Shown piece after piece: positions 55,824-64,000 of a DNA stretch of 64,000 nucleotides; positions within the stretch are counted from its first letter, which is position 1; each line of letters starts with the position of its first letter. The DNA lies in assembly GCA_008330645.1 (NCBI GenBank), contig VLTN01000036.1, positions 62,001 to 126,000 on the forward strand. The letters run 5' to 3'. A program made the position numbers and the translations under genes. The notes beneath the pieces were generated by a model, which was given only the letters and a program-made list of their open reading frames with translations, made no database searches and was not told the origin of the DNA. The stretch is from Cafeteria roenbergensis (taxonomy: Eukaryota; Sar; Bigyra; Bicosoecida; Cafeteriaceae).

Positions 55824-58800
55824 ATGGACGTCTTTGATGATTTGGACGATGCCGTGCGCTCCGCGGAGTCAATGTCGCGCAGCCAGCGCCTGAAGCGAAG
55901 GACTGGCTCGGCGACGCTGCCGAGCCTCGCCGCCGTGACCGACAGCGGGCCAACCAAGGTGAGCCCAGGCCGGCCCACCGCCGCGGAATCGAATGCCGTG
56001 CACGCTGCGCTTGTAGCTGGTTCGTGCTCGCACCGTTGGCGGGGTCTCCTCCGCCAAGCGCGCCGGCCGCCCTGCTTCGAACCGCACTGTGCCGCCTCGC
56101 GCGGGGCGGTTGGCGGGCAGGCCGTGCGGACTGGTGCCCAGGCGGCCAGTTATCGTCGCTGCACGTCGCCCTTTCGGGGTGTGGGGGGCGGCGCTGCGCT
56201 GGCCCCGCTGCTTCGGCGACTGCTCGACAGGCCGTCGGATCGGGGTGGCGCGGCAATTTGAAACGCGAACATTTGCCCTCGTCAAGCGTTGCCAGCCCAG
56301 CTTGGCGCCTCCCCGCTGGCGCCCCGCCGCACCAGCGCTCCAGATCGCCTGCATCGTTCAAGGCCTTGCGCTCCTTTTTCTCTTGGCCGCGTGCTCGCTT
56401 GATGCGCAGCTGGTGCCGGGGCGCGCAAGGCTGCGCTCACGGCGCTCGCGAGGCGAGGGCGACCGCGCCCCCAACGAGGCCCTCCCGCACGCGGGGCCGG
56501 GCTTGCGCGTGCGCAGCTCGTCGTCTGTTGCATCTCGCTCGTCTTCCACGTCCGGGTCGCGGAGCCCAGCTTTCGAATCCAACGCCCGCGCCCTGCGCAC
56601 GAGCAGGCGCACCACCAGCCTGGCTGTCGGAAGCCCCATGTCGTCTGACGAAGGCAGCGAGGACCCTGGCGTCCCCGCTCCCGACAATGGCCACACCCGC
56701 GACGCCACCCGGAGCCGCGCCACGAGTGGGCACGGCACGCAGCCCCGATCTCGCGGGTCGGCAGCTCGCGCAAGCATCGGTCGCGCGTCAGTGCCAAAGG
56801 GGGGAAGCACTCGCGCGGTCGACGGCCCGACGAAACGCCGATCGACGTCTGCCACCAAGGCTCGCACCAGGAGCCCTGCCGACAACAGCCACGACGACAG
56901 CGGCGACGAAAGTGCCGGCGACAGTGCCAAGGACTGCGCCGACGACGACGACAGCGTTGGAGGTTCTCGCGCTGCCACGGCGTCGCGCGTCCGCACCTCA
57001 AGCAGCTCTGCCACGAACGGCGCAAATTCCAAGCCGGCGACGGCCGGTGCGGGTGCCCCGGCAGCAGCGAGCCGCGGCAGAGCTGTGGCTCTGGCAGCCC
57101 GCCCAGCCAAGCGCGGTCGGTCAACCTCCTCATCATCATCCTCGTCCTCCTCCTCGTCCGCGGGGTCCCCGTCGGAGAGCCTCGCCGGCCCCGTGTCACG
57201 ACCCCGCGGCGGGCGGGCGCGGCGTGCCGACAGCGCAGTTTCGCTCAGCTCTGCCGATCCTGCCGACTCCGGGCGTGCCGACGCCCGCAGCTCCGCCGGT
57301 GCGGCACGCAGCGCATCAAGCGGCTCGGCGGCGTCAGCTCGGCGGTCAGCTGGTCGGTCTGGGGCGAGTGGCAAGCGATTGGGCCAGCGGGCGCGTGCAG
57401 GCGCTCGGACTGACGGGCAACGCCGATCCCAGGCTCAGGCTCAGGCTCAGGCCGAGGCAGAGGCAGAGGCAGAGGACGATCATCCAGAGGCGGAGGAGGC
57501 GGATGACGACGACGACGCCTACGAAGGCGGTGAGGAGGCCGCAGCCGACGGCGACGTCACCGAAGGGGACGATGTCAACGCAGCGGCCACCGGCGCCGCT
57601 TGCCGTGGCAGCCGCAGACCACGCCGCCGCGCCAGGCCGTCCGATCCCTCGGACCCCGCCCCTGACGGAACTGCCGCGCCTTCCGCCAAGCGGGCCCGGC
57701 CCTCTGACCCGGGCAGCGTGGGCGGTGACCCCGAGGCCCCCAGGGGGGCCTTGGCAGCCTCTGTCGACGCTGCTGTTCTTCCCTCTGCAAGCTCGGCCGT
57801 CGTCGCTCCTGCGGCGGCGTCCTCCCGCGCAGGCTCTGAGCGCTCCTCTGCCAGCTCGAGCTCTGCCAGAGACCCGTCTCAGTCCCCGACGCACTCCCCT
57901 GCCAGCAGTGACTCTGCCGGCTCGCGGCTGTCAGGCAGAGCCGGTGACGCGGTGGCGCAGCCTGGACGGCCGGGTGCAGGGCAGGCCAGCAGCGCAGCGT
58001 CGGGGCGCCGCGCAGAGCTGGCAGGATCGGCAGCTGCGTCGGCCGCCGCGGCTGCCGCATCGGTGGCGGCTGCTGACTCCGGCCTGGGACGCGATGCGGC
58101 CGGGTCAGCCGGTGCCGCTGCCGCTGCCTCCAGTGGCGGGGCAGCCGGCGCCGCCTCGGGCTGGTCCGTGGAGCTGTCCGTTGCAGAGCGAGAGGCTGCC
58201 GCGAGCAGCCGCGAGGCGCTCGCCCTGGCCGCCAAGGCAGAGCCAGCAGAGCTGGTCGTGCAGAGGAGATTCGAGCAGAGCTTCCAGGCGCACGGCGTCA
58301 GCCGGCTCGCCACGGCAGCGGTTCCTCCGGGAGCCAGGGACCTCGACTTCACGCACGGCCAGCGGCAGGACTACGCTCCCCGGCTGGGCGCTGACGTCAT
58401 CGACTACTACAGACTGCTTGAAGTGAGTCCCCTGCTCCTGCCTGCGTTGCAGCACACGCACTCTGGCTGCCGATGGCCCCGCGGCTGGTCCTCGAATCCC
58501 GGCCAGGCCCTGCTGGTGCCTGTCCGCCCGCCAGTGCTCCTCACCGCGGGCCTGCCCTGGCGCCCGCGCCCGCGCCCAGCGCACGCAACGCCCCACACCG
58601 CGCCTCGCGCCCCTCCCCTGGCTTGCGCCCGCTTCCCGCAGGCCAAGTACGAAGTGGACCCGGAGTACTTCACGGGCGTGCAGTCCGAGGTGACCCCGTC
58701 CATGAGAGCGGTGCTGGCGGACTGGATGCACTCGCTCCACGTGTCGTGGGGCCTGCGCCCGGAAACGCTGTACGGCGCCTTGCAGCTGGTCGATCGCTAC

Positions 58801-59475
58801 TTGACGCACCACGCAGTGTCGCGCTCGCGGCTACAGCTGGTGGCCATTGCGGCGCTTATGGCGTCCTGCAAGCTCGAGGAGCAGCACCCGCCGTCGCTGG
58901 CCGACTTTGCGGCCTCGACACGGGACACCTACTCTGTGTCTGAGGTGCGGCGGGCAGAGATGAGGCTTTGCACCCGGCTGGGGTGGAAGCTTCGGGGAGT
59001 GAGCCCGCGCACGTTCCTCGCCAGGTTCTTGGATGCTGGGGGAGCGCGCTGCGGCGACGCCCAGGCAAACTTGACGAAACTCTACTGCGAGCTGGCGCTT
59101 GTGGAGGCGCGGTTTCTGCGATACAAACCGTCCCAAATTTGCGCGGCGGCAGTGTACGCTGCGAGGTGGCAGATTGGGCTGAAGCAAGGGGGGCAGTTCT
59201 GGAACCCGACGCTTGAGCGGTTCACCGGGTACAGCAGGGACGAGGTCCACCCGATTGCGAAGGAGCTGTTGTGGGCTCACCGCGATGCGCGCAACAGCCG
59301 CCTTCGGTCCGTCGTGATCAAGTACAGCGACAAGGCCTACGGTCAGGTTTCGACAACGTTTGTTCCCTTGGCGGCCTCTGGAACCGACTCAGCGGGCAAC
59401 AGCTACCCAACGGAATTTCCTGCCGACGAGCCGACCCACTCGTGCTGTCAACAGGGCCGCTCGAAGCACCGGTAG
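55824..59475 (+). CDS. A/B-type mitotic cyclin with a long disordered N-terminus
   Basis: Activating partner of a cyclin-dependent kinase. Exons 55824-55958, 56410-58422 and 58642-59475 give about 993 residues. The second acceptor (56410) follows a pyrimidine-rich tract and is the best fit; the alternative at 56344 would add 22 residues. Cyclin boxes start near residue 715: YEVDPEYFTGVQSEVTPSMR, AVLADWMHSLHVSWGLRPET, LYGALQLVDRYLTHHAVSRS, then VAIAALMASCKLEEQHPP. The second box follows (KPSQICAAAVYAARWQIG then FTGYSRDEVHPIAKELL). The MRAVLADWM pattern is of the A/B class. Before the boxes lie some 600 Ser/Ala/Arg/Asp residues, far longer than in usual mitotic cyclins (about 150-250); this is where destruction boxes would be, but none is clear. 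The second intron (219 nt) has no stop in frame, so its retention would insert 73 residues just before the cyclin box. Confidence 0.88.
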
Positions 59476-60001
59476 TTGCATGCCCCGATTGCGTGTTGCT
59501 TCGCGAGCCCAATGGACGGCCGCGACTGCGGCTGCTGGGTGTCCGAAATTGCCGTGCGAGCGCTGACGCCCTCCACACGGAGCTCGCGGACGGGTCCTTG
59601 CCGCATGTTTGAGACCAAAGCGACCACTCGAACGCAAATCAGGCACAAACAGCTTGGCTTTTTCTCGCAGCTGGCGGAAGCACGGGGCCTGGGGTTTGAA
59701 GTCTGACCGTTGAGTCACACGCCACGGCTCTGTCGCACGGCGTGACTCCAGCCGCGCACGGGTCAGGGGGCCTGGCTGCCCCTCGAGGCAAAAGCCCGAG
59801 CCGCGGCCGCCTGCGTGCGGCTCCACTCGTGCTGCCGCCGCCCGCCGAGGCGACGCGCACGCCAGTGCCAGCCGCCGCGAGGTGCCATAGCCCACCCGAA
59901 GGTGACAATCAGGGGGGCAAATATGTGGTGCTGGGTCTGATGGGAGTTTGACGAGAAAGCAGCTGTTGGTTGGGGCCACTTTTTCCAGCTCCGGGGGCGC
60001 G
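59476..60001. other. Spacer before the duplicated membrane-protein gene
   Basis: No gene recognised. The last 67 bases (from 59935) match the sequence upstream of the second copy at 63365. Confidence 0.5.
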
Positions 60002-60568
60002 ATGGACGGCCAAAGCACTTGCGTGAAAGCGATCCAGGTCTTTTTTCTCTCGTTGGGTGTTCTGATCGGGTTCTCGTGAGTCCGGGGCGGCGCGAGGGGC
60101 GGCAAGACAGGAAATGTCGCGGCTTGAGTCGACGGCGCCTTGCCTGCAACTCCCGCCCACGACCGCCCCGCAGGATCCTGACCGGCTGGCCCGCGACGCT
60201 GCTCTCGTTGATCCAGCTGCGCGCGGCGGTGCTTGACGGCTTGGCCACGGCGGGGTCGCAGGCTACTGCTGCAGAAGTGATGCTGATAGTTTCCTTGGCC
60301 AACTTGAGCGGGATCAACTTCGCCATTGTCGCGGCATGGGTTTTTGCCCCCTATGTCATGAGCCTGATTGCGCTGGGGGCGGTCATTTTCTACGCGTCCA
60401 CCAAGTCGCGCAGCATCCCCCGCTTGGCCGGCCTGGTCCTTGCGGCCGGCTTCATCGTCACGTCGGTGACTCTCTCAACTATGGCCTTTTTCCGGAGCCA
60501 GTACAGCCTCCGATCGGTGGCGATCACGCGCTTCCAGGGCGACGGGGGCTTCCGCGAGCTCTCATCCA
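59935..60568 (+). repeat. Segmental duplication, copy 1
   Basis: Matches 63365-64000 with an offset of 3430-3432 bases. It covers 67 bases of 5' flank, exon 1, the 98-nt intron and the first part of exon 2. Identity is strongly uneven: intron and much of exon 2 nearly identical, exon 1 and one block of exon 2 divergent. The true right end is unknown because copy 2 runs off the window. Confidence 0.9.
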
Positions 60569-61410
60569 ACGTGGTCATCCCCACGGTCAGCATTTCCGAG
60601 CTGCAGCAGGGTGCGGCCGCGCTCGGCACGCCGACCAGCCGGCTCAGCCCGCATGACCAGCGGTTCACGGTGCCGCAGCACACGGTGTTCAAGGTGCCCC
60701 TGGTGTCGTCCTCGCCGTTTGGCTCGACGCTGGGACTGTGGGAGGCCCCGGCCGGTACGTACAGCCTCAAGGAAGAGCCGCAATTCGGGCGCGCCATGGG
60801 CGTGCTGCTCACAGGCGCCGCCCGCATCTCGCCCGCGGGGCTGGTGGAGGAAGTCGGCACCGAGGCGGAGGTGGTGGGATTCGTGACCTGGGCGTATGGA
60901 ATCAACGGCGCGGTGACGGAGAACATCGCACCGATGCCGTGCGGCTCGGGCGCCGATGCGCCCGCCGCAGACCGCATGACGACCAGCGTGTGCGGCGTGT
61001 CGGCGTGGGTCTCGACACAGGGCATCGCGCTCGGGCAGGAGGGCGCGCAGCTCGCTGCGCTGGGTCGCATGAATGTGGCTGTGAACCGAACCGTGCTCGA
61101 GTTGAACAAGGCCATGCCCCAGGATGCACAGTTCGACGTGTCGGCTACAGCCAAGGCAACGGTGCTGACCCAGATTCCGGAGCTTCGAGGGGTGATGTCG
61201 GCCCGCCGCGCAGACGCGGCATTCGCCAACGACGTGTACGTGGCGTACACAGTGATCTGGGCAGGCGTGTCCCTGCTTGGGCTGGCTGTTGTGATCCTGC
61301 TCGTGTACTTGGACACTTACAAATCGCAGGCCGAATGCCCGGCTTGCCTGGCCTGTTGCAGGCACAAAGCCAACCCGTCGTCGACAGCACGCCCGGCGTC
61401 TGACGTGTGA
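60002..61410 (+). CDS. Four-pass membrane protein of unknown family (copy 1)
   Basis: I do not recognise the family. Two exons, 60002-60075 and 60174-61410, with a 98-nt GTGAGT/CAG intron, give 436 residues. Exon 1 is a hydrophobic start (residues about 11-25: IQVFFLSLGVLIGFS), either a signal peptide or anchor. Helices follow at about 74-98 (FAIVAAWVFAPYVMSLIALG) and 108-131 (LAGLVLAAGFIVTSVTLSTM). Some 260 residues without long hydrophobic stretches make a large extracytoplasmic or cytosolic domain (with GSSPFGSTLG-like Gly/Ser loops and PMPCGSG). A last helix near 393-415 precedes a Cys-rich tail, CPACLACCRHK, which could be palmitoylated or bind metal. The start fits because a second copy 3.4 kb away has the same exon plan. 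A surface or sensory protein is possible but not shown. Confidence 0.78.
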
Positions 61411-61639
61411 CTCGCTCTGTATTCACTTGAAATCTGATCGGCACACGAACACCTTCACAGAGCTCTGCCATCTAGTAGAGCCTCAGCTCTGCTGGACTTC
61501 GCAGTGCGCTGCGTCGCCCGACCTCGAAAGCAAGTCCATACCAATCCAAGTACGAAGAAATATCTCAGCTGGATACTTCTGATGGCACTTGTGCGTGTTG
61601 GCTGGTTCGTTGGCCACACTCGATCGTCACACACTTCCA
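61411..61639. other. Convergent spacer
   Basis: Lies between the 3' ends of membrane protein copy 1 (plus) and the unrecognised gene on the minus strand. It is AT-richer than most of the window. No feature recognised. Confidence 0.45.
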
Positions 61640-63079
61640 TCACTGGAGTTGCTGCCTCCACCAATCCCCGCTCGTTGTAGATTGCTTTGCGCCGCTGCTA
61701 GCCGCAGGCCCCACTTCCAACTCGGGCAAGTCTATTGGGTTGGGACTTGCCTCGCTGCCCCATGGCGCGCGCGACAGGGTTGCTGCAGACTTGCTGGCTT
61801 TCCGCAACAGGAGGGCGATTGACGAATCGTTCCTTGCCCAGACTGCCAGGTCGTCATGAAATCGTGCCCCAAACGCTTGAGCTTCTGCTGGAGCGAGTCG
61901 GCGACCCTTGGAGAGGCTTTCAACTAATGCTGGCGTGAAGGAAGAGAGGGAAGGCAGGATCTTCCCCAATTGCTCCGGCAGGCCACACACTTGAAGTTCC
62001 TTCACCAGGGCGTTCACGGTCAACCCTCGCGCCAGAAGGATTGGGACGGGCGAGGAGTCTCCAACGTGGGCGACCAGGCGGGCCAGCGCGTGGACGTCGC
62101 CATGCAGCACGGTATCCAGCTCCTCCCGAACGTGAGGAAAGCGATCGCGCGGCTCGGAGCGTTCCTGTTTGAGAAGGTCTCGCAGTCTGAGGCGTTTCGC
62201 CGCACGGCCGTCGCTGATTCTGTCCCTGTCGCGCTTGCCGGCGGTCTGGCGGGCAGCCGACGAGGCGACGTCTGATGCTGCACATGCGGCTGCTGCACAT
62301 GCTCCGGTTGAGGCCAAACCAGCTGCCTCTTCTACCTTTGGGGAGAAGCCCTCGGCTGCCGGCCCTGTGAGAGAGATGCAGGGGGAGGCTTCAGCGTCCA
62401 AGAGCGGGCCAGAACCGCCTTCCAGGGGGGGGCTGGGTTGGTCGCCCCCTGGCGCCGGGTACGAAAACCTCTTCATAATTGCCGCCAGGTCCAATCCCGT
62501 GTTGACGCAGCGGAAGTGCTTGGCGAAATCAAGGACCAGCACAAGGAGGGGCGACATGAAAGCAGCGCCGTTTCCTGTAGCCTCCATGCCCTGAACTGTG
62601 GTGGAATCCGCGGTTGACTCCTGGGCAGCCTGCTTCTGTGCCGCCAGAGCCTTGGGCAGTTGCGTCTTGAATTTTTTGTCCAGGGACTCGACGGCTTTGT
62701 AGTCAACTGCATCCGCTGGCACGCCTTGCGCAATCATCCTGGCCCGAATTTTGTGGCCTTCGCCAGATGCAGAAGCCCACTCGCCCCAGATTTGGCGCCA
62801 GCAATGCATCCTGGCCCGGTGAGAGCTCTTGAGCGCAGCCTTGGAACCTTGCGGATGTGCTTTGGTCCCAGCGCCTGCCTCCCGCCTCTCCGCTGCGGTC
62901 TTGCCGCGAACATGGGCGCCAGTCTTGGCATCCTCAAACGCGTGTGTTGCAAGGGTCGCGATCACGGCGCGTCCGAAGACCAGCAAGCGTTTGAATTCCG
63001 CCTGGCTCACGTACGTGAGCTTTTTGCGCTTTTCGCTGCCGTCTGCCGCGGCGTCTGCGCCAGAGGCAGCAAGGAGCAC
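61640..63079 (-). CDS. Unrecognised 479-residue protein
   Basis: Single open frame I cannot assign. Residues 1-150 are basic, with helical character (AEFKRLLVFGRAVIATLATH, RARMHCWRQIWGEWASASG, KKFKTQLPKALAAQKQ). A hydrophobic patch follows (residues about 175-187, FMSPLLVLVLDFA), too short and too charged on its flanks for a sure helix. A Pro/Gly/Ser/Ala-rich linker leads to a basic cluster (KRDRDRISDGRAAKRLRLRD, a plausible nuclear signal). The C-terminal part (330-440) is helical and leucine-rich: VHALARLVAHVGDSSPVPIL, LLARGLTVNALVKELQVCGL. Its base composition is less extreme than in the neighbouring GC-rich genes. It sits between the two copies of the membrane-protein gene, on the opposite strand, and may belong to the repeated unit. 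A transposon-derived or regulatory protein is possible; no catalytic motif seen. Confidence 0.5.
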   Translation of the reverse strand: MLLAASGADAAADGSEKRKKLTYVSQAEFKRLLVFGRAVIATLATHAFEDAKTGAHVRGKTAAERREAGAGTKAHPQGSKAALKSSHRARMHCWRQIWGEWASASGEGHKIRARMIAQGVPADAVDYKAVESLDKKFKTQLPKALAAQKQAAQESTADSTTVQGMEATGNGAAFMSPLLVLVLDFAKHFRCVNTGLDLAAIMKRFSYPAPGGDQPSPPLEGGSGPLLDAEASPCISLTGPAAEGFSPKVEEAAGLASTGACAAAACAASDVASSAARQTAGKRDRDRISDGRAAKRLRLRDLLKQERSEPRDRFPHVREELDTVLHGDVHALARLVAHVGDSSPVPILLARGLTVNALVKELQVCGLPEQLGKILPSLSSFTPALVESLSKGRRLAPAEAQAFGARFHDDLAVWARNDSSIALLLRKASKSAATLSRAPWGSEASPNPIDLPELEVGPAASSGAKQSTTSGDWWRQQLQ

Positions 63080-63433
63080 GGCAATGCAAGCTATGGGCGC
63101 AGCTCAACGGGGGGGAGGGGTGCCTGGGGCGGCAGACGCGCGAGCAGACGGGCTTGTCTCTGCCGGCAGCCGCCGGCCACCGCCTGCAGCCGCCAAGGGC
63201 TCACCCTCCAGGCCCGTTGCGCCCGAGGCTAAAGCGTCATGCCTGGAAGCCACCCCGGCAAACAAAAGGCCTGTGGCGACCCTTCAGGAGTGTGAGCTGG
63301 GGCACGTGGCCAAATTAGGACTTGCGGCCAGATCAACCGGCAGAGGTGAGACCCGAACGCCAGCGTCTGATCGGAGTTTGACGAGAAAGCATCTGGTGGG
63401 CGGGGCCACACTTTCCCCAACCTCGGGGGCGCG
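63080..63433. other. Divergent spacer before copy 2
   Basis: Between the start of the unrecognised minus-strand gene and membrane-protein copy 2. From 63365 onwards it matches the flank of copy 1. Presumed to hold two promoters. Confidence 0.45.
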
Positions 63434-64000
63434 ATGGCCAGCTGCGAGTCCTGCTTGAAAACGCTCTGGGCCGCTTGTGCCGTGCTGGGCGTTCTGATCG
63501 GGCTCGCGTGAGTCCGGGGCGGCGCGAGGGGCGGCTCGACAGGAAATGTCGCGGCTTGAGTCGACGGCGCCTCGCCTGCAACTCCCGCCCACGACCGCCC
63601 CGCAGGATCCTGACCGGCTGGCCCGCGACGCTGCTCTCGTTGATCCAGCTGCGCACGGCGGTGCTTGACGGCTTGGCCACGGCGGGGTCGCAGCAGACGG
63701 CTGCAGAAATGATGCTGGAATCGGCCTCGATCACCATGACCGGGATTGACTTCTCCTTTGTCGCGGCATGGGCTTTCGCCCCCTATGTCATGAGCCTGAT
63801 TGCGCTGGGGGTGGTCGTTTTCTACGCGCGCAGCAAGAAGCGCAGCATCCCCCGCTTGGCCGGCCTGGTCCTTGCGGCCGGCTTCATCGTCACGTCGGTG
63901 ACTCTCTCAACTATGGCCTTTTTCCGGAGCCAGTACAGCCTCCGATCGGTGGCGATCACGCGCTTCCAGGGCGACGGGGGCTTCCGCGAGCTCTCATCCA
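63365..64000 (+). repeat. Segmental duplication, copy 2 (cut by window end)
   Basis: Counterpart of 59935-60568. The last roughly 155 bases before the window edge are identical to copy 1 as far as I can compare. The duplication probably continues beyond the window. Confidence 0.9.
63434..64000 (+). CDS. Four-pass membrane protein, copy 2 (partial)
   Basis: Second copy of the unknown membrane protein, truncated by the window end. Exon 1 is 63434-63507 (74 nt, as in copy 1), the intron 63508-63605 is again 98 nt, and exon 2 starts at 63606 in the same phase. The start reads MASCESCLKTLWAACAVLGV, quite unlike the copy 1 start, whereas ILTGWPATLLSLIQLR and the third-helix region LAGLVLAAGFIVTSVTLSTM are the same. 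Residues 60-77 differ again (AEMMLESASITMTGIDFSF here). The open frame has no stop up to the edge. Its function is unknown, as for copy 1. Confidence 0.78.

What the first reader, a model, noticed from the sequence alone, without database searches (positions are those of the whole stretch)
60002..64000. Duplicated membrane-protein gene with a conserved intron but heavily diverged exon 1
By direct comparison, exon 1 (74 nt) differs at 28 positions between copies, while the adjacent 98-nt intron differs at only 3. In exon 2 the first stretch is almost identical. A 45-nt block (about 60288-60332) then differs at 16 sites, and the last 155 nt before the window edge are identical. Introns normally diverge faster than exons. 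This mosaic points to gene conversion among several paralogues plus diversifying selection on the N-terminus and one segment next to a membrane helix, or to cassette-like exchange of segments. It could be a variable surface-protein family.
Basis: seen in the sequence. Interest (0 to 1): 0.8.

Follow-up and report, generated by a model that had tools for sequence, protein, structure and literature searches.

The report
Gene pair homogenised with divergent islands
Two neighbouring copies of an unknown membrane-protein gene are almost identical along most of their length, intron included, but very different in three short stretches, which is best explained by copying of sequence between the duplicates that spared those stretches; it looks like a clear case of a known evolutionary pattern, not a variable surface-antigen family.

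Summary
Two copies of a two-exon gene lie 3.4 kb apart in the same orientation. Exon 1 differs at 27 of 74 nt, the 98-nt intron at 3, and exon 2 alternates between near-identical and divergent stretches. Of 117 differences over 1463 alignable sites, 104 fall in three islands totalling 385 nt. Silent and non-coding sites show the same pattern, so the islands are older than the rest: the mark of gene conversion that overwrote the intron and most of exon 2. Changes in the islands lean to the first two codon positions, which suggests but does not prove selection for divergence. The islands are the N-terminus with helix 1, the small loop with helix 2, and helix 4 with the tail. Two proteins sharing a loop but differing at their ends are likelier than a variable antigen. 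No convincing match in Pfam, NCBIfam or the PDB. The pattern is known (Tigriopus GOT1, RHD/RHCE; in look also venom-gene segment switching). Organism unidentified and no outgroup, so direction and selection cannot be settled.

The parts
59935..60001 (+). copy 1, start of homology with copy 2 (upstream region / 5' UTR); 10 of 67 sites differ plus 2 gap columns; unalignable further upstream
60002..60075 (+). copy 1 exon 1 (24 codons + 2 nt; N-terminus and most of helix 1); with the 5' UTR it forms divergence island 1 (59935-60074, 37 of 140)
60076..60173 (+). copy 1 intron, 98 nt, GT..AG; 3 differences to copy 2
60174..61410 (+). copy 1 exon 2 to stop codon; whole protein 436 aa with four hydrophobic helices (10-28, 74-92, 112-130, 384-402)
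60075..60261 (+). homogenised tract A (intron and start of exon 2), 4 of 187 differ
60262..60407 (+). divergence island 2 (small loop, helix 2 and the basic turn after it; residues about 55-103), 30 of 146 differ
60408..61270 (+). homogenised tract B (helix 3, the large loop and the start of helix 4), 9 of 863 differ
61271..61369 (+). divergence island 3 (rest of helix 4 and the tail with Cys 413, 416, 419, 420 in copy 1, absent at those positions in copy 2), 37 of 99 differ
61370..61397 (+). last homologous stretch, 28 of 28 identical; the copies are unrelated after it and copy 2 reads on into a longer tail
63365..63433 (+). copy 2, start of homology and 5' UTR
63434..63507 (+). copy 2 exon 1
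63508..63605 (+). copy 2 intron, 98 nt
63606..64000 (+). copy 2 exon 2, cut by the window edge; it continues to a stop ending at L005:7978 (would be 64978), with a tail of about 46 residues that copy 1 lacks

Best explanation
An old local duplication of a membrane-protein gene, after which interlocus gene conversion overwrote the intron and most of exon 2 of one copy with the other (supported by the two-age mosaic; donor and number of events unknown), leaving three short unconverted islands. Inferred: the islands survive because the two proteins differ in use there. They are the N-terminus with helix 1, the small loop with helix 2 and its basic turn, and the last helix with the tail, while the large loop stays the same. 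The likely result is two proteins with one shared large loop but different membrane anchoring, sorting or partners.
For: Segmentation splits the 1463 sites into islands of 26%, 21% and 37% and tracts of 2.1% and 1.0%. Silent divergence follows it: pS 0.18 pooled over the divergent blocks against 0.018 in 60411-61260. With islands defined from amino-acid changes alone (segments with more than 15% changed residues), codons with unchanged amino acid differ silently at 7 of 49 inside and 7 of 323 outside (P 0.0008), 4-fold sites at 5 of 31 against 4 of 214 (P 0.002). The non-coding upstream stretch (10 of 67) is also more divergent than the intron (3 of 98), P 0.0075. The two tracts do not differ detectably in age (4/187 against 9/863, P 0.26). 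The flanks are unalignable. No Rfam match in 59900-60500 offers a reason for a constrained intron. The same pair in the same order lies on contig C100. Third-position changes in the islands are 19 of 93 against 27 to 29 expected (P 0.005-0.017).
Against: No outgroup and no third sequence, so conversion is inferred from two sequences only; silent counts in the islands are small (about 17 estimated changes). The excess of amino-acid-changing positions is uneven: exon 1 P 0.015-0.023, island 2 P 0.048-0.064, island 3 P 0.35-0.51; Fisher tests per segment not significant (the pooled blocks were not tested that way). The edges of the islands depend on the model. G+C is lower in the islands (0.55-0.65 against 0.67-0.75), which fits GC-biased conversion but also codon content.
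Confidence: 0.7

Rival explanations
1. Segment switching: a recent duplication (about 2-3% neutral divergence) whose N-terminal, loop and tail segments in one copy were replaced by short conversion tracts from a third, more distant paralogue, as proposed for venom three-finger toxin genes (ASSET).
For: Same look: intron and most exon sequence alike, discrete exon segments different, no length change inside the coding islands. Raised silent divergence in the islands is expected too.
Against: No third paralogue by DNA search with copy 1, with all of copy 2 or by protein search (11 of 14 matches lie in the four known places, the other 3 have E 0.22 or worse); the tool calls its counts lower bounds and the assembly may be incomplete. 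Exon 1 is recognisably homologous between the copies. The divergent block includes the 5' UTR, and both flanks are unalignable.
Confidence: 0.13
2. Recent duplication with strong positive selection in three segments and no conversion.
For: dN 0.61 against dS 0.22 in exon 1; pooled blocks 0.36 against 0.21; fewer third-position changes than expected. Homology ends sharply at both edges.
Against: Silent sites and the upstream stretch are also several-fold more divergent than the tracts, which selection on amino acids alone does not produce.
Confidence: 0.12
3. Variable surface-antigen family with cassette exchange.
For: Predicted membrane protein; mosaic divergence.
Against: Two copies only; the tract with the large loop is conserved; contigs C36 and C100 agree at 115 of 117 paralogue-specific sites and none of the 2 others is an exchange, though C100 is too alike to be an independent sample.
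Confidence: 0.03
4. Assembly artefact (false second copy).
For: The consensus is imperfect: C100 copy 1 has several small gaps in its frame, and the frame of copy 2 is interrupted once on each contig, at different places.
Against: The copies differ at 117 sites, have unrelated flanks, and occur in the same order on two contigs.
Confidence: 0.02

Closest known systems
GOT1p1/GOT1p2 of the copepod Tigriopus californicus (PMC3728101; abstract and passages seen)
   Same: A gene pair with a mosaic of low and high divergence attributed to continuing gene conversion, with regions of high divergence persisting.
   Different: GOT1p1/p2 have no introns and low Ka/Ks, and population data show transfers. 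In the same paper's other pair the large intron is the unalignable part. Here an intron lies inside a homogenised tract, and dN in the islands is at or above dS.
[quoted passage not shown] Innan's paper not read)
   Same: Very similar duplicates with regional divergence explained by a balance of conversion and selection. That they too are membrane proteins is recalled.
   Different: Known loci to which a population model was applied; here an orphan family and two sequences.
ASSET, accelerated segment switch in exons, of viperid three-finger toxin genes (PMC2474615; abstract and section list seen)
   Same: Intron segments highly similar while some exon segments differ distinctly.
   Different: There five gene structures and segments taken as exchanged for distinctly different ones; here two members, homologous exon 1, no donor found.
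Tetraspanins (features recalled)
   Same: Four helices by hydropathy, small first and large second loop, cysteines near the membrane in copy 1.
   Different: No CCG motif and only two cysteines in the large loop; no Pfam match.

Membership tests
Gene pairs with conversion tracts and surviving divergence islands | Significant alternation of near-identical and divergent tracts | tested here: met
   0 of 10,000 shuffles reach the longest run; dispersion 5.8 against at most 1.7 in 5,000
Gene pairs with conversion tracts and surviving divergence islands | Silent or non-coding sites show the same alternation | tested here: met
   Silent codons 7/49 against 7/323, upstream stretch 10/67 against intron 3/98
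Gene pairs with conversion tracts and surviving divergence islands | Paralogues closer to each other than to their orthologues in the homogenised tracts | not testable with these tools
   No eukaryotic relatives held; single-protein scans of viral and prokaryote contigs, which reach close relatives only, found none
Gene pairs with conversion tracts and surviving divergence islands | Selection for divergence in the islands (Innan-type) | tested here: inconclusive
   Third-position deficit P 0.005-0.017 pooled, absent in island 3; Fisher tests and amino-acid counts show no excess
ASSET-like segment switching | Introns alike, exon segments different | tested here: met
   Intron 3/98, exon 1 27/74
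ASSET-like segment switching | Segments exchanged for unrelated ones, from other family members | tested here: not met
   Exon 1 homologous (the other two islands not tested by shuffling); no further member found
Variable surface-antigen family | Many members and a variable exposed domain | tested here: not met
   Two members; tract with the large loop 9 of 863 nt different
Tetraspanin | Four helices with a large loop between helices 3 and 4 | tested here: inconclusive
   Hydropathy peaks 10-28, 74-92, 112-130, 384-402 fit, but hydropathy only; the fold prediction of exon 2 was poor (mean pLDDT 44)
Tetraspanin | CCG motif (recalled) and the Pfam profile | tested here: not met
   CCG absent in both copies; 0 Pfam families at E up to 10 for spliced copy 1 and a 397-residue piece of copy 2

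The most novel reading that the evidence does not exclude
A two-gene system in a eukaryote in which conversion keeps one shared large loop identical while the membrane-anchoring ends are exchanged or driven apart segment by segment, with a break at or just before the end of exon 1 (within one base of the intron in the five- and six-segment models, 17 nt inside exon 1 in the seven-segment model): a segment-switching mode outside venom genes that retargets a constant ectodomain.
Probability: 0.1. Interest if true: 0.55.

Novelty: new member of a known kind. Interest (0 to 1): 0.3.

Why it matters
It is a compact example in which an intron and silent sites serve as the neutral yardstick that separates conversion from selection. 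If relatives confirm it, the three islands point to the residues that distinguish the two proteins and the conserved large loop points to their shared task. It also shows that an intron more alike than its exons is not by itself a sign of a variable antigen family.

Tried and rejected
Constrained intron (hidden RNA): no Rfam match in 59900-60500 up to E 1. Third donor paralogue: none found. Homologues elsewhere: scans with the exon 2 protein matched 3 stretches in viral contigs and 11 in prokaryote genome contigs, none confirmed as a relative; one weak PDB hit each at E 0.033 (exon 2) and E 1.1 (loop piece), not believed; no NCBIfam family up to E 1 for exon 2, no Pfam family for exon 2 up to E 1 or for spliced copy 1 up to E 10. 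The 131-residue copy 2 piece gave three Pfam hits below their cut-offs, best E 0.017, not believed. Structure of exon 2 alone: mean pLDDT 44, pTM 0.28, not used further. Organism: the 18S family search failed twice on the machine's side; an 18S pattern and the 5.8S family gave nothing; the 5.8S control rang in 9 of 14 control genomes, all bacteria or archaea as listed, so its absence here may only mean that rDNA is not in the assembly. Allele comparison: C100 is nearly the same sequence as C36 (49 substitutions and 235 gap columns over 12,973 aligned sites), so it is not an independent population sample. The cruder simulation (0 of 2,000 for the third-position count) was replaced by that. The silent-site test (4-fold sites 7/32 against 4/215, P 7e-5) used islands drawn from all differences and is partly circular; I rely.

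Papers: ASSET abstract and section list, GOT1 abstract and passages, review passages; search listings only. No claim is made that such a pair is not in print.
Full report
What is there. The window is part of contig C36 of an unnamed 36.3 Mb assembly in 167 contigs, eukaryotic to judge by its introns and cyclin gene (inference). Near its right end lies a gene with exon 1 at 60002-60075, a 98-nt GT..AG intron at 60076-60173 and exon 2 to a stop codon ending at 61410, coding for 436 residues. A second copy in the same orientation starts at 63434, with its intron at 63508-63605, and runs past the window edge. Homology begins 67 nt before the start codon and ends 13 nt before the end of the copy 1 stop codon; beyond both edges the copies are unalignable. 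Copy 2 reads on and has about 46 further residues. A 487-codon open frame on the other strand lies between them.

The full comparison, 1463 sites and 117 differences, gives three islands (59935-60074, 37 of 140; 60262-60407, 30 of 146; 61271-61369, 37 of 99), two tracts (60075-60261, 4 of 187; 60408-61270, 9 of 863) and a 28-nt identical end (six segments, BIC 659.8). A seven-segment model is as good (BIC 659.1) and moves the first break from 60074/60075 to 60058/60059, inside exon 1; a segmentation on amino-acid changes alone puts it at 60052/60053. So the break lies at or a little before the exon 1 boundary, and I do not claim that it coincides with it. None of 10,000 shuffles reaches the observed longest run.

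How many copies. A DNA search with copy 1 and one with all of copy 2 each give four places: both copies on C36 and both on C100. A protein search with exon 2 gives 14 matches, 11 in those four places and 3 elsewhere with E 0.22 or worse. The tool states that its counts are lower bounds. C100 is nearly the same sequence as C36: 49 substitutions and 235 gap columns over 12,973 aligned sites. It agrees with C36 at 115 of 117 paralogue-specific sites; at the other 2, C100 copy 1 has a third base, in stretches where neighbouring mismatches suggest misplaced gaps (inference), and neither is an exchange between copies. The coding frame of copy 2 is interrupted once on each contig, at different places, and C100 copy 1 by several small gaps; I take these for consensus errors, which is inference.

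Conversion or selection. Selection on the protein alone does not make silent sites differ between segments. Silent divergence is pS 0.18 in the pooled divergent blocks and 0.018 in 60411-61260. Because islands drawn from all differences make that test partly circular, I repeated it with islands drawn from amino-acid changes only (segments with more than 15% changed residues, a cut-off of my choice): codons with unchanged amino acid differ silently at 7 of 49 inside and 7 of 323 outside, P 0.0008, and 4-fold sites at 5 of 31 against 4 of 214, P 0.002; the upstream stretch differs from the intron at P 0.0075. This supports two ages of sequence, hence conversion. The two tracts do not differ detectably in age (P 0.26), so one event with a spared island or two events of similar age both fit.

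Whether selection also acts is open. dN exceeds dS in exon 1 (0.61 against 0.22) and pooled (0.36 against 0.21), but Fisher tests are not significant in any of the six segments or overall. Simulated neutral change gives 27 to 29 third-position differences against 19 seen (P 0.005 to 0.017 with three assumed third-position GC contents); by segment exon 1 P 0.015-0.023, island 2 0.048-0.064, island 3 0.35-0.51; the count of changed amino acids (54) is no higher than simulated (56 to 58).

What it may do. Hydropathy gives four helices (10-28, 74-92, 112-130, 384-402 in copy 1) and a loop of some 250 residues between the last two. The islands are the N-terminus with helix 1, the small loop with helix 2 and its basic turn, and the rest of helix 4 with the tail. 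Copy 1 has a cysteine cluster at 413, 416, 419 and 420 and a glycosylation-like sequon at 68 that copy 2 lacks; copy 2 has cysteines at 4, 15 and 392 that copy 1 lacks; the sequon at 329 and cysteines 281 and 298 in the large loop are shared. That is the reverse of an antigen whose exposed part varies, provided the large loop is outside, which was not tested. I infer two proteins that share the large loop and differ in anchoring, lipid modification or sorting. No convincing family match was found, and the fold prediction is too poor to use.

Known kind. The pattern is that of duplicates homogenised by conversion with surviving islands, as described for Tigriopus GOT1 and, through a review, for RHD/RHCE. 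It resembles ASSET in look, but exon 1 is homologous between the copies and no donor was found. The finding is sound but of a known kind; its boldest suggestion, a variable surface family, is not supported.

Noticed in passing
61640-63103 (-): A 487-codon open frame between the two copies; two Pfam hits below cut-off only (best E 0.15), no NCBIfam match, one distant match on contig C22 (28% identity, E 6e-5).
   Followed up: partly
58645-59472 (+): Cyclin gene (Cyclin_N E 1.8e-30, Cyclin_C E 8.3e-28) just upstream of copy 1; the open frame extends far upstream through Ser/Ala-rich sequence.
   Followed up: partly
L006:5498-5566 (C36:134498-134566): A short-period repeat (offsets in steps of 3) of about 69 nt on C36 that spans about 645 nt at the corresponding place on C100, a large length difference between two near-identical contigs.
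   Followed up: no
L006:8658-10000 (C36:137658 onward): Head-to-tail repeats of 343 nt, 91-95% alike, about 3.9 units seen, running off the fetched stretch.
   Followed up: no
C36 against C100, window-equivalent 69500-70000: After 24 substitutions in about 12 kb the two contigs differ at 22 of 498 sites, a sudden rise that looks like the edge of a homozygous run or of a redundant contig.
   Followed up: no
59935-61369, islands against tracts: G+C is 0.55-0.65 in the islands and 0.67-0.75 in the tracts, as GC-biased conversion would give, but codon content is a confounder.
   Followed up: partly
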